Assembly: GCA_036345935.2 (NCBI GenBank)
Contig: JADWOT020001770.1
Location: forward strand, 30,001-94,000
DNA length: 64,000 bases
Reading direction: 5' to 3'
Origin: Taenia hydatigena
Taxonomy: Eukaryota > Platyhelminthes > Cestoda > Cyclophyllidea > Taeniidae
Shown: positions 1-7,277 of the stretch, piece after piece
Numbering within the stretch: the first letter of the stretch is position 1
How the letters are laid out: each line of letters begins with the position of its first letter
Translations under genes and position numbers: made by a program
Notes under the pieces: generated by a model
Told to the model about the DNA's origin: nothing
Seen by the model: only the letters and a program-made list of their open reading frames with translations
Databases searched by the model: none

Positions 1-245
1 CGATAGAAATTATACGAAGCCATAAAGTGTGCCGTCTCCGATATATCAGGCATACTTATCTTGACATAAAAACGCAACTTTCCAACCTCCGGCTTAAATA
101 TCTGAGTATGTGAAAAACGCATTCGACAAATAGCTCCACCATTATGCGGCCTGCGAATACGATACCTACGCCGATAACGCCGAAACCTTCTGAAATAATA
201 CTTACGACGACGAAAACTACGCCTGCTACGCCTAGGGACAACCAT
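1..245 (-). CDS. CRESS-DNA virus-like capsid protein, N-terminal part, runs off the window
   Basis: Starting at the ATG at 245-243, the minus strand stays open for 81 codons to the window edge. The first 37 or so residues are dominated by arginine and aromatic residues (for example RRSRRSFRRRKYYFRRFRRY). This is the basic DNA-binding and nuclear-localising head typical of circovirus and cyclovirus capsid proteins. A less basic segment follows (FKPEVGKLRFYVKISMPDIS) that would enter the jelly roll. No stop or frameshift is visible, which is unusual beside the broken copies downstream. The Rep N-terminal exons lie upstream on the same strand, so the usual ambisense circovirus layout is not seen here. 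The rest of the gene is outside the window. An arginine-rich host protein is the alternative, but the nearby Rep pieces make a capsid much more likely. Confidence 0.72.
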   Translation of the reverse strand, partial: MVVPRRSRRSFRRRKYYFRRFRRYRRRYRIRRPHNGGAICRMRFSHTQIFKPEVGKLRFYVKISMPDISETAHFMASYNFY

Positions 246-412
246 TACGCCAAGAACAAAGGACTAAAACGACTACCACATGATGAGTCATACCCACTAC
301 AGTAAAACAAAGCGCTAACCAATCAGAAACGAGCACGTAAAAATGACGTCACCTACCTAACCAGTAGGGCTTAAGCACGTGCAAACCTAACTAACCAATC
401 AAATAACTTCCT
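246..412. promoter_or_regulatory. Noncoding gap between capsid and Rep pieces with repeated TAACCAATCA, CRE and E-box motifs
   Basis: Two exact copies of TAACCAATCA lie at 316-325 and 392-401. A TGACGTCA palindrome sits at 344-351 and a CACGTG at 376-381. A TATATATA-type stretch lies just beyond at about 419-428. The motifs are directly visible. A role as a viral intergenic promoter or replication region is inferred from the position between two viral genes. No NANTATTAC-type nonanucleotide stem-loop was found in this gap. Confidence 0.4.
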
Positions 413-495
413 AAGAACTATATATACTGTTGCGAATACGAACAATACCCAATTTATGTTTGATGACTATGAATTTTTTTGCTCGAGACAAATGC
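413..495 (-). pseudogene. CRESS Rep fragment, candidate second exon of the nuclease domain
   Basis: After an AG at 497-496 the minus strand reads on for about 27 codons (beginning HLSRAKKFIVIKHKLG) to a stop near 413. In circovirus-like Rep proteins, the stretch after the HLQG motif has the same spacing and a lysine-rich pattern leading to a K-x-LG. The expected third nuclease motif with its catalytic tyrosine is not present, because the frame closes first. The piece is therefore a remnant. Confidence is lower than for the first exon because it depends on the reading phase set by the putative intron. Confidence 0.5.
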
Positions 496-567
496 CTAAA
501 ACAACACATGATATTAGTTCAGAGAGTCGGGAAGCGATATTAAGCAAAAAAGCAACGGAAAACTTAC
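496..567 (-). other. Candidate 72-nt intron within the Rep nuclease domain
   Basis: On the minus strand the sequence from 567 to 496 begins GTAAGT and ends TGTTTTAG. The homology to Rep continues in phase on both sides. Introns in rep are known in some cycloviruses and other CRESS-DNA viruses. The splice signals are visible; actual splicing is inference. Confidence 0.5.
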
Positions 568-725
568 ATATACCCCTGCAAGTGAGGGGTTTTAGTCGTA
601 GGGGCAATTTCTTTTGCTATGATAGCGTATTGCGCCCATTGCTTAGCGAAATCTTGCAATTTGGTATATTCTGTATCCGTGTAGTTGTTAAGGGTTAGGC
701 AGAACCGCTTTACGAAGGCTTCCAT
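568..725 (-). pseudogene. CRESS-DNA virus Rep N-terminal fragment (HUH nuclease motifs I and II)
   Basis: From the ATG at 725-723 the minus strand encodes about 52 residues that match the start of circovirus/cyclovirus replication initiators. Near residue 8 is FCLTLNNYT, the motif I region (family pattern FTLNNP). Near the end is TPHLQGY, which contains the HLQG of motif II that coordinates the metal ion. Rep nicks the viral origin to start rolling-circle replication. Here only the front of the domain survives, ending at a GTAAGT donor at 567. No stop lies within it. A Rep linker fragment sits only about 20 bases upstream on the same strand, which is out of natural order and indicates rearrangement or a concatemer junction. 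Confidence 0.78.
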
Positions 726-746
726 GTTTCTGTGTTTCGAAGTTAG

Positions 747-857
747 CTATTCGGCAGTATTGTACATACTTTCACCATTCCTGATTGCTTCAGCAGCTCT
801 CTTCAGATCATTTCTCTGGCCATGTTTCACAGGAACACCAAACTTCCAATCAGATTA
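747..857 (-). pseudogene. CRESS Rep linker fragment between nuclease and helicase domains
   Basis: The minus strand from 857 to the stop at 749-747 gives about 36 codons including GVPVKHGQRNDLKRAAEAI. Circovirus-like Rep proteins carry a G-QR-DL segment followed by an amphipathic helix between the nuclease and the Walker A motif, and this matches that pattern. It is bounded by stops on both sides. In an intact Rep it should follow the nuclease exons, but here it precedes them, so the order is permuted. Confidence 0.65.
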
Positions 858-903
858 CTCTGTGGTAAATACAGCAATGAAAAAATATTGTTTATGAACA
901 TTC

Positions 904-1068
904 TTACCGATTAAATAATTGGTCTTCCGCTGTCTGGACCAATTCGACCAGTCTAAAGTTTTCATCCAAACTTTCGGTGTCGGTGGTGTCGAACAAATCG
1001 CCAGTTTGGGATCCGCTTTCAACAAGGCGTCGTCCATTGTCCTTAGCCGTCGTTGAAAAAGTTGCCAT
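904..1068 (-). CDS. Unrecognised acidic 54-residue reading frame ending at a splice-donor-like site
   Basis: From the ATG at 1068-1066 the minus strand encodes 54 residues rich in Asp, Glu and Thr (it contains GDLFDTTDTESLDENFRL) and closes at the TAA at 906-904. That TAA lies within a GTAAGAA sequence that could act as a splice donor, so the frame may be an exon rather than a complete gene. It lies directly upstream of the Rep fragments on the same strand. I do not recognise it with certainty. Acidic N-termini occur in several small-virus replication proteins, but this resemblance is too general to assign a function. Confidence 0.3.
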   Translation of the reverse strand: MATFSTTAKDNGRRLVESGSQTGDLFDTTDTESLDENFRLVELVQTAEDQLFNR

Positions 1069-5279: not shown

Positions 5280-5480
5280 ATGGGCGACGATGATAAGGCC
5301 GAACCCATGTCAGAGGGTAAGGTCTTAGCACGGGAAACGAGAGACGTAAAAGCTGTAGGAGGAATGGAAAATAAAACTACAGCAATGTCTACGCCTTCCA
5401 TTTCATTTAAGAAATTATTAACGCTTGGTAATACAGGCCACGCTGCAACTTCTCAATACAATGCCAGGTTCGTTTGAAGA
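5280..5480 (+). pseudogene. Possible parvovirus-like capsid N-terminal segment
   Basis: The ATG at 5280 opens a 65-codon frame whose product is acidic and then Ser/Thr-rich (MGDDDKAEPMSEGK near the start; FKKLLTLGNTGHAATS near the end). It lies about 170 bases after the NS1-like end and a polyadenylation-like AATAAA, and in front of the capsid-like region, as a VP N-terminus would. No phospholipase A2 motif is visible. The assignment is positional. Confidence 0.35.
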
Positions 5481-5629
5481 AAATGCACAAGAAAATCGTT
5501 TCGCTGCTTTTGTACTAAGCACCACTTTTTGGAACCATTTATTCAAAACATAATTTTAAAGCAAATAAAATTATGCTTAACCCCAAATGGAATTCCTCCT
5601 ATCCTTTTTTTTCATTTAGCAAAGCATGA

Positions 5630-6248
5630 ATGAAGATAAGTCGACTTTTACCTTCTACGACACAGGCAGCAGGAGGGATAACTTCTGTCGATGAAGTCCA
5701 AATAGATAATTCACATTATATGCCAGTTGGAATTAGTAGAGGCGGTTTTCCGGAAGGATCACGTCCTACAACTGGACTTGACGCTCTTAAGACAATGCAA
5801 TGCTGTGGTGGATATGAAGGTAATGGATATGCCAATTGCCAAGACCGTGGGACGGAGAGGAGAATATCATCACGAAATTAACATTCCAAATCCACGAATT
5901 CGATGCTTCTATAAAACACCTACATTTGATGCAGATTCATTTCATATCTTACCTCGAGATTTCGGATCAGTACCATGCATGGGAGATAAAAGCGGAGCCT
6001 TTCAATTACCAGGACCAGATAATCAAATGGTTATTCTCCAAATGCCTTTCCAAAAAAGCTTTGCAACAAATACCGCACTTGTATTTCTGTACGGAAATGT
6101 AATCGTGGAAACGGAATTCGAAGTATTTCCCCATCCTGTGCCCGAGCATGTATTTACTGCAAAACACAAGGACTATATAACCAATAACAGTATTCCATTA
6201 AAAACTTACGAGAACACCATTGGTGGAAAAGCCTATGAAACTGTATAA
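5630..6248 (+). pseudogene. Parvovirus-like capsid (VP) C-terminal remnant
   Basis: Best seen from about 5860 to the TAA at 6246-6248, in the frame with INIPNPRIRCFYKTPTFDAD, GAFQLPGPDNQMVILQMPFQ, VFLYGNVIVETEFEVFPHPV and a tail PLKTYENTIGGKAYETV. Alternating hydrophobic strands with a 'V-E-T-E-F-E-x-F-P' run near the C-terminus resemble the last jelly-roll strands of densovirus-type capsids. Upstream, from 5630 to about 5860, coding traces appear in another frame (VQIDNSHYMPVGISRGGFPE), so at least one frameshift separates the parts. It follows the NS1-like remnant on the same strand, the normal parvovirus order. Confidence 0.55.
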
Positions 6249-6745
6249 TTCGAGGCTTCCATTAAATGTAATTTGTTGCTATGCTTTCTGTTTTTGAGGA
6301 CGGACGCCTGGAATTGGTATACGAGGAAGTGAATAGGATCTGCACATGATCGTCATGGATGACGTATATACAGGATGATTTCTTTCTTAACTGTTGTCAC
6401 TTTACAATTGTTGCTGCGTAGTAGTGAACTCCGGAAGAATTAACTTCTGGAATTCTTCTCTGGGGAAACGCAGCACTTGGAAGATTATGTTGCGTAGCCA
6501 GACTAAAAGAATTCTAAGCAAAATTACAATTTTACCTAGAAGGTGTCTCAAGTTCCGATCCTTGGGCCACGTCCGCCAATCAGATGGTGCTTTCCAATTC
6601 CTCTGTGCTGATGTTACGGGACAAGTCTTCAAAATCGGATTTGCATTCAGTAAAGCTTGCCCCATCGCTAAACAAGTCTTCCCGTGAGTGTGCCATACAT
6701 GAAGAAGTATTCCAGCTGTAGATCTATTTATACATTTTATTTGCA
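6249..6745. other. Post-capsid interval, no recognised gene
   Basis: Both strands have open stretches of about 100 codons (6394-6687 plus and 6402-6746 minus), but neither product shows a family signature and they overlap. It could be the untranslated tail of the viral segment. Confidence 0.4.
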
Positions 6746-6753
6746 CTGAGTTT

Positions 6754-6774
6754 ATTGGTTAAAATTTAACCAAT
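6754..6774. repeat. Palindrome built from the TAACCAAT element
   Basis: ATTGGTTAAA and TTTAACCAAT are perfect inverted partners around one base. The same half-site makes the stem at 2642-2663 and occurs twice at 316-401. It lies between the capsid-like remnant and the large terminal palindrome. Confidence 0.6.
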
Positions 6775-6973
6775 GAAATAGTGGTAGACAATATTGAGAT
6801 GCTTTATTCAGTTAAAATGATTGATGGTCTATGTTGCTTTGTATTTTGGTACCTGGAGCTAATAGCCCGTCTGCTTTTCAAGGCCATTGCTCAAATAATG
6901 CATGTTCAAGGTCGCATGCAGACATTAATTATCGGGATCCCCCTTTTGTCACTAGTCATTGCAGCTATTCAGC

Positions 6974-7277
6974 TTCCACCGCGAAGCTCTTTCCCACCTC
7001 CTACTCCTTCTTCCAGTTCGGAGGCCCTCTGAGTCATTCCAATCCGGTTGGCTTACGCGCGCTTGTGCGTGGAGGTAGGAGGGGGCGGAGAGACCGCACA
7101 CTGGACTCCTCGTGGGAGTCCTCCCACCCCTCGCTACGTCCAGTACGCTAAGTCTCCCCCTTCCTCCCCTCCTACCTTCGCACGCAAGCGCACGTATGCC
7201 AACCGGTTTGGAATGACTCAGAGGGCCTCCAAACTGGAAGAAGGAGTAGGAAGTTGGCGAGAGTTTCGCAGTGGAAA
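6974..7277. repeat. Large palindrome with nested central palindromes, parvovirus terminal-hairpin-like
   Basis: Two arms of about 150 bases are inverted copies. For example, CTACTCCTTCTTCCAGTT at 7001-7018 faces AACTGGAAGAAGGAGTAG at 7232-7249, and CCGGTTGGCTTACG faces CGTATGCCAACCGG. The arms are highly similar, with scattered substitutions. At the centre, ACTGGAC (7100-7106) pairs with GTCCAGT (7138-7144), and GGACTCC/GGAGTCC forms a further hairpin near 7104-7122. An outer stem with inner small stems is the layout of parvoviral terminal repeats. It is GC-rich and lies about 730 bases after the capsid-like end. A foldback transposable element is the alternative. Confidence 0.65.

What the first reader, a model, noticed from the sequence alone, without database searches (positions are those of the whole stretch)
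1..7277. Mosaic of two unrelated single-stranded DNA virus groups at one locus
CRESS-DNA Rep and capsid pieces and parvovirus-like NS1 and capsid pieces are interleaved within 7.3 kb, on both strands and out of natural order, and are bounded by a terminal-hairpin-like palindrome. Endogenous circovirus-like and parvovirus-like elements are each known in animals, but such a mixture at a single site is unusual. It could be repeated integration into a hot spot, recombination of episomes before integration, or a chimeric virus lineage.
Basis: partly seen in the sequence, partly recalled or inferred. Interest (0 to 1): 0.88.

Follow-up and report, generated by a model that had tools for sequence, protein, structure and literature searches.

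The report
Tapeworm island of two virus families
A genome that is almost surely a tapeworm's carries a crowded graveyard in which fossils of two unrelated small DNA virus families, circovirus-like and densovirus-like, are shuffled together and then copied several times with the DNA beside them.

Summary
The mixture is real and larger than reported. The window is C1070:30001-94000 of a 306-Mb genome; the viral island starts about 10 kb before it (about C1070:19.6-37.3 kb). Upstream frames settle the families: Circo_capsid E 3e-15, Viral_Rep 8e-17, Parvo_NS1 1e-16 and 2e-12. A VP there is 75% identical to a Hymenolepis weldensis protein, so the host is almost surely a cestode. Compared pieces of this one island fall into five Rep, two Cap, four NS1 and two VP lineages. 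A terminal-repeat-like hairpin stands at 6974-7276. All 11 junction points tested recur on 3 to 7 contigs, so an assembly chimera is very unlikely. The homology runs on through a Gypsy-like element and flanking DNA: the finished mosaic was amplified as host DNA. Elsewhere Rep (24 of 101 matches) and NS1 (2 of 29) lie apart, and both Rep-to-NS1 joints examined are out of frame. Best reading: repeated integration of circovirus/cyclovirus-like and tapeworm-densovirus DNA at one site, then rearrangement and segmental duplication. A chimeric virus is not supported, though not excluded. Why the site is shared is open.

The parts
3..263 (-). N-terminal part of a circovirus-type capsid gene; continues upstream of the window (C1070:29685-30263)
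567..746 (-). CRESS Rep N-terminus (HUH motifs I and II, motif names recalled)
496..567 (-). 72-nt GT...AG intron-like gap in Rep after motif II; prediction from the letters only
   Evidence: two tapeworm cyclovirus Reps have introns of 31 and 71 nt (PMC12197738, passages)
750..854 (-). CRESS Rep linker piece, out of order (5' of the Rep N-terminus)
   Evidence: matches lie between N-terminus and helicase in Rep copies of natural order upstream; the PDB search gave no Rep, only 8erw, taken to be a designed repeat protein
858..1118 (-). ORFx copy A: unassigned frame with relatives at two other places of the island
1362..1439 (+). remnant of one ITR arm, matching 7006-7083
   Evidence: no hairpin left in 1300-1600, z -0.02
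1508..1599 (+). first copy of block D1, directly after the ITR remnant: looks like a head-to-tail densovirus joint (inference)
1849..1971 (+). CRESS Rep linker
2028..2315 (+). CRESS Rep SF3 helicase piece; Walker A looks degraded by eye
2231..2437 (+). CRESS Rep C-terminal piece in another frame
   Evidence: no Rep match in the PDB
2531..2938 (+). unassigned frame, present in sister copies
3109..3492 (+). second D1 copy inside a longer unassigned frame with one stop
   Evidence: best PDB hits of 3109-3345 are antibody light chains (best E 0.015), taken as chance
4337..4696 (+). parvovirus-type NS1, region before the helicase
4700..4969 (+). NS1 SF3 helicase, Walker A
4884..5108 (+). NS1 SF3 helicase, later motifs; the gene is broken here by a stop, a frame change and a short deletion relative to sister copies
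5250..5474 (+). VP, first piece
   Evidence: position after NS1; conserved in sister copies
5630..5878 (+). VP, middle piece in another frame
5706..6245 (+). VP, C-terminal piece
   Evidence: DUF5744 only at E 0.089, against 9e-27 for the upstream VP
6405..6758 (-). ORFx copy C between VP and ITR
   Evidence: no homologue found
6974..7276 (.). inverted-terminal-repeat-like hairpin
7396..10377 (-). decayed Gypsy-like retroelement (limits by eye) beside the hairpin, copied with the island
   Evidence: Integrase_H2C2 E 3e-5, just below Pfam's cut-off

Best explanation
It is an endogenous-virus island in what is almost surely a cestode genome. SHOWN: remnants of at least five circovirus/cyclovirus-like Rep lineages and four densovirus-type NS1 lineages lie interleaved in about 18 kb; the finished mosaic, with a Gypsy-like element and flanking DNA, recurs on seven contigs, partly as inverted copies. 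INFERRED: one stretch (858-1599) is a head-to-tail densovirus joint (right end, ITR remnant, next unit). Viral DNA entered the germ line by illegitimate repair of breaks, again and again at this site. Palindromic ends, integrated replication origins and homology to earlier remnants probably made the site prone to breaks and recombination, so that each insertion favoured the next. Later inversion and duplication reshuffled the pieces. The island as a whole has no common function; single frames may still be transcribed.
For: Families from long open frames. Many lineages in one island. NS1 nearly confined to the island contigs (27 of 29 match rows), while Rep also occurs without NS1 elsewhere (24 of 101 rows). 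Parts of window 434-14652 recur on six sister contigs with mostly 1-8% divergence in virus, Gypsy-like element and flank. 11 of 11 junction points tested recur in 3 to 7 contigs, within alignments of 90-99% identity. Inverted copy within the same contig (C1070:19623-20777 against window 1122-2275, 98.9%). ITR remnant plus D1 in 13 further copies on 7 contigs. Hymenolepis relatives of VP and NS1. Head-to-tail densovirus concatemers are published for Echinococcus (PMC6880638; parts 1, 3 and 4 of the text and passages seen).
Against: Some upstream frames (Cap, NS1, VP) are open in several copies, which old dead remnants need not be; either they are young or something keeps them. Six of the seven island contigs have lengths that are multiples of 1000 and look like unplaced fragments, so the copy number could include haplotype or assembly duplicates. 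Window 434-2440 is mostly 1-4% diverged between copies against mostly 2-8% further right, with exceptions both ways (C1305 9.8% and C1210 16% in 860-1500; C1210 0.5% in a 192-nt stretch of NS1); a single uniform duplication does not predict that. The hot-spot mechanism has no direct evidence.
Confidence: 0.8

Rival explanations
1. Chimeric virus lineage: a virus with a circovirus-type Cap, origin and Rep nuclease joined to a densovirus NS1 helicase and VP replicated as one genome and was endogenised.
For: At C1070:27164-24153 an open Cap frame, an origin-like hairpin, the Rep nuclease and linker, NS1 and VP stand in a plausible order, Rep, NS1 and VP on one strand; the same order is on 4 of 7 contigs (C1070, C671, C1143, C491).
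Against: The Rep and NS1 frames differ at this joint in 4 of 4 contigs (starts 79 nt apart) and at the other Rep-to-NS1 joint in 6 of 6 tested; later indels could have shifted frames, and the contigs are copies of one event. The two joints cut Rep at different points, and a third (Rep to VP, C1305) at yet another. None of the 24 Rep matches outside the islands has an NS1 match near it.
Confidence: 0.05
2. Co-infection concatemer: episomes of both viruses recombined in one cell and entered as a single array.
For: A head-to-tail densovirus-type joint lies directly between CRESS pieces; Rep and NS1 or VP share orientation at the three Rep-to-NS1/VP joints.
Against: Five Rep and four NS1 lineages at 31-83% aa identity would need many virus types in one cell.
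Confidence: 0.12
3. Assembly artefact joining unrelated viral contigs.
For: The contigs are small (55-116 kb), six of seven with rounded lengths.
Against: Each of 11 junction points tested recurs in 3 to 7 contigs inside alignments of 90-99% identity, and the homology runs on into non-viral flank.
Confidence: 0.02

Closest known systems
Endogenous tapeworm densoviruses (Herz and Brehm 2019, PMC6880638; parts 1, 3, 4 and passages seen)
   Same: NS1 then VP on one strand, VP of about 320 aa, ITR hairpin downstream, head-to-tail copies in isolated repeat-containing regions, cestode host.
   Different: The word circovirus does not occur in its main text; here CRESS DNA is interleaved, an extra (-) frame (ORFx) lies between VP and ITR, and four NS1 lineages share one island.
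Circovirids of tapeworms (PMC12197738, PMC10269781; listings and passages seen)
   Same: Rep with a short intron in the two cycloviruses, Rep and Cap with a nonanucleotide hairpin, tapeworm samples; Rep-like sequences in a Spirometra assembly are mentioned there.
   Different: Those are separate virus genomes or partial sequences; here integrated, with Cap, Rep and origin, rearranged. TAGTATTAC, seen here, was the nonanucleotide of the two circoviruses there, not of the two cycloviruses.
Parvovirus integration hot spots in arthropods (PMC6631224; passages seen)
   Same: Several independently acquired viral elements at one site.
   Different: There both lineages are parvoviruses; here two unrelated families mix, in a flatworm.

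Membership tests
Circoviridae-like CRESS virus | Rep with HUH nuclease and SF3 helicase | tested here: met
   Viral_Rep 8e-17, RNA_helicase 7e-14 and 6e-11; window pieces
Circoviridae-like CRESS virus | circovirus-type capsid | tested here: met
   Circo_capsid E 3e-15 for one frame (a second, partial frame 3.5e-6, below cut-off); the window's own piece only through its upstream continuation
Circoviridae-like CRESS virus | divergent Rep and Cap around a nonanucleotide stem-loop | tested here: met
   C1070 Rep (-) 26287-26129 and Cap (+) from 26493 with GAGTATTAC in an 8-bp stem at 26301; TAGTATTAC with a 12-bp stem on C1305 and C580. Inside the window none was found (stem scan of 250-560, and nonamers of the form [TCA]A[GAT]TATTAC with a stem of 7 or more)
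genus Cyclovirus | Rep and Cap orientation relative to the origin, Rep intron, phylogeny | tested here: inconclusive
   nonamer on the strand opposite Rep (which genus this marks is recalled) and a 72-nt intron-like gap fit; TAGTATTAC matches the circoviruses rather than the cycloviruses of PMC12197738; no tree made
Circoviridae-like CRESS virus | circular ssDNA genome of about 2 kb | not testable with these tools
   only integrated pieces seen
Parvoviridae, tapeworm densovirus lineage | NS1 SF3 helicase of parvovirus type | tested here: met
   Parvo_NS1 1e-16, 2e-12; 81% identity over 112 aa to a H. diminuta protein
Parvoviridae, tapeworm densovirus lineage | capsid gene downstream of NS1 | tested here: met
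   VP frames of 311-337 aa downstream of NS1 with Hymenolepis relatives; that it is a capsid rests on position and on the published assignment; both structure models failed
Parvoviridae, tapeworm densovirus lineage | terminal hairpins at both ends | tested here: inconclusive
   right hairpin yes; elsewhere in 1-7300 only a half-arm remnant
chimeric circo-parvovirus | in-frame Rep-NS1 fusion, or the same joint at unlinked sites | tested here: not met
   a spliced fusion was not testable
assembly chimera | junctions unique to one contig | tested here: not met

The most novel reading that the evidence does not exclude
The array Cap - origin - Rep nuclease - NS1 helicase - VP at C1070:27164-24153 is the fossil of a real circovirus-parvovirus chimera in which splicing joined a CRESS nuclease to a parvovirus helicase, and it later seeded this island.
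Probability: 0.05. Interest if true: 0.92.

Novelty: new variant of a known kind. Interest (0 to 1): 0.56.

Why it matters
[quoted passage not shown] One amplified island that traps two ssDNA virus families makes the hot-spot question testable by synteny. Integrated Rep, Cap and origin together would also be germ-line evidence that circovirus/cyclovirus-like viruses infect cestodes, whose role as hosts is otherwise argued from virus genomes found in tapeworm samples. A screen of animal genomes had found Rep-derived but no new Cap-derived circovirus elements (PMC6069186, passages).

Tried and rejected
Viral contig scans with NS1, VP and Rep pieces and a Rep motif pattern gave no relatives; an NS1 motif pattern gave 50 loci that matched window pieces at best at E 0.003. 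The collection may simply not hold such viruses. Protein searches with ORFx (1 candidate) and the window VP piece (15 candidates) found nothing; only the open upstream VP worked. Structure models of VP had mean pLDDT 31, so no fold search was made. PDB searches with NS1 pieces, the window VP piece, 3473-3766, 3109-3345 and 2231-2437 gave no viral match; 750-854 hit only 8erw. A second capsid at 3476-4108 (-) was considered and dropped: scores no better than shuffles (of three upstream frames tried there one, from 22102, beat 297 of 300 shuffles and was not followed). Selection tests on sister frames: too few changes to judge, and the VP pairs with C671 are distorted by a frame difference. Pfam noise: among 130 pieces unrelated families reach E 0.0008-0.002, so the window's own Viral_Rep 0.0012 and Parvo_NS1 0.02 are no proof alone. 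Void results: the NS1b query and the NS1 stop counts and frame offset of the second joint used a wrong frame start; they mark places only.
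Full report
What is there. The 7.3 kb of the finding hold CRESS and parvovirus pieces on both strands. CRESS: a Rep N-terminus on (-) (564-746; viral Rep chains, best E 3e-4; Viral_Rep 0.0012) and a Rep helicase on (+) (2028-2318; E 6.5e-10). The frame 3-263 (-) is the most Arg-rich of 463 frames in the window. Parvovirus: NS1 pieces at 4337-5108, VP pieces at 5250-6245 and a long hairpin at 6974-7276 (z -20.8). The window pieces alone are weak in Pfam, and chance matches in 130 frames reach E 0.0008, so the case was settled outside the window. 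CpG observed/expected is 1.48 in 1-564 and 0.89-1.42 in most viral stretches against 0.68-0.81 in the rest of the window, but three viral stretches (564-860, 6250-6973 and the hairpin) are at 0.67-0.79.

The genome. The window is C1070:30001-94000 of a 306-Mb, 1354-contig assembly. The ten kilobases before it carry long open frames: Cap (Circo_capsid 3e-15), Reps (Viral_Rep 8e-17; RNA_helicase 7e-14 and 6e-11), two NS1s (Parvo_NS1 1e-16, 2e-12) and a 311-aa VP (DUF5744 9e-27). The window's capsid piece is the start of a 193-aa frame that crosses the window edge. Rep copies in natural order and a Rep-Cap pair transcribed apart occur there. An origin hairpin with TAGTATTAC and a 12-bp stem sits on two sister contigs, and a GAGTATTAC form lies in the Rep-Cap gap of C1070.

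Host. Six proteins match the VP. The named ones are from Hymenolepis weldensis (75% identity), H. microstoma (74% over 56% of the query) and H. diminuta (77% over 24%; a gene model that begins with an NS1 helicase). The NS1 is 81% identical over 112 aa to that H. diminuta protein. The host is therefore almost surely a cestode; a mitochondrial test got no answer.

Not one virus, not one event. Inside C1070:19.6-37.3 kb, six Rep N-termini compared form five lineages below 85% identity (two are identical), four NS1s four lineages (31-71%), three Cap pieces two lineages (52% between them) and two VPs two (26%). CRESS and parvovirus matches, ORFx counted with the latter, alternate with 6 to 13 switches per contig. 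Within the window two direct homologies stand out: 1508-1599 with 3334-3427, and 925-1271 with 6553-6910; a longer alignment of the second, 841-1500 with 6381-7100, is 53% identical over 614 positions, with 0 of 300 shuffles scoring as high. With the ITR remnant at 1362-1439 they read as right end, ITR, left end: a head-to-tail densovirus joint, as published for tapeworms (PMC6880638, found through a reference list; parts 1, 3 and 4 and passages seen).

Amplification. BLAST of window 1-20000 finds parts of the block on six other contigs, and the homology runs through the Gypsy-like element into non-viral flank (to window 14652 on C1143 and 14063 on C671, where the fetched tiles end). Divergence is mostly 1-4% in 434-2440 and mostly 2-8% in 3100-14600, with exceptions on C1305 and C1210. 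Points spanned by alignments with at least 150 nt on both sides (the window itself left out): the CRESS/densovirus border 858, and 748 inside Rep, in 3 contigs; ITR remnant/D1 and D1/Rep in 7 (13 copies, one of them the window contig's own second copy); 2480, 3105, 5180 and 6300 in 6; 6960, 7300 and 10450 in 5. An assembly chimera would have to be repeated in diverged copies. Inverted copies within contigs show further rearrangement.

Chimeric virus? Two collinear Rep-to-NS1 joints exist (C1070:21635/21621 and about 25865). Frames differ at the first in 6 of 6 contigs tested (C491 not tested). At the second the NS1 frame and the second Rep stretch start 79 nt apart, so not in one frame, in 4 of 4. 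These are copies of two events, and later indels could have changed frames. Across the genome 27 of 29 NS1 match rows lie on the seven island contigs; the other two are lone remnants on C2 and C5. Of 101 Rep match rows 24 lie elsewhere (C7 11, C786 7, C1 2, C2 2, C4 2), and the nearest Rep match to a lone NS1 is about 8 Mb away on C2. The two families thus lie apart elsewhere, though rows are not insertions, only best candidates are scored, and remote NS1 types may be missed. A spliced fusion is not excluded.

Mechanism. Shown: mixed remnants, interleaved order, shared joints, copies that include flanking DNA. Inferred: germ-line entry by illegitimate repair, and a self-reinforcing site in which hairpins, origins and earlier remnants attract breaks and recombination. 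NS1 being nearly confined to this locus argues that the site is special, but a locus that merely tolerates insertions cannot be told from one that attracts them.

Known or new. Endogenous flatworm densoviruses (PMC6880638; PMC13055364, abstract, one section and passages) and tapeworm circovirids (PMC12197738, PMC10269781; listings and passages) are known, and sites with several parvovirus lineages are known in arthropods (PMC6631224; passages). Both families were found endogenous in crustaceans in one survey (PMC4573495; passages, none on a shared site). Nine literature searches listed no paper whose title or abstract start reports circovirus-like and parvovirus DNA interleaved at one locus; only open-licence papers are held, and few of the listed papers were opened.

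Noticed in passing
C786:13858-25375 and C1:33399313-33402997: Rep clusters without an NS1 match: seven Rep match rows on C786 within about 12 kb and an inverted Rep pair with open frames on C1.
   Followed up: no
C7, 11 match rows between 1.6 and 10.1 Mb: Older Rep remnants, all with stops, on one large contig, several with near-identical scores as if duplicated.
   Followed up: no
window 11109-11884 and 22957-23701: A repeat pair, 68-70% identical.
   Followed up: no
window 7331-64000: Among 76 frames of 84 aa or more only one scores in Pfam at E below 0.001 (DUF5726, 1.5e-26; H2O2_YaaD at 0.0023 is likely chance); no tandem repeat scores 50 in the 64 kb.
   Followed up: partly
window 6405-6758 (-), 858-1118 (-); L072:832-1146 (+): ORFx: an unassigned frame conserved at three places of the island, antisense to the neighbouring NS1 or VP where these are present.
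   Followed up: partly
window 3476-3766 (-) and C1070:22145-22281 (+): An unassigned frame with 62-65% identical matches elsewhere in the island, near diverged Rep; not capsid-like by shuffle test, except that one neighbouring upstream frame beat 297 of 300 shuffles.
   Followed up: partly
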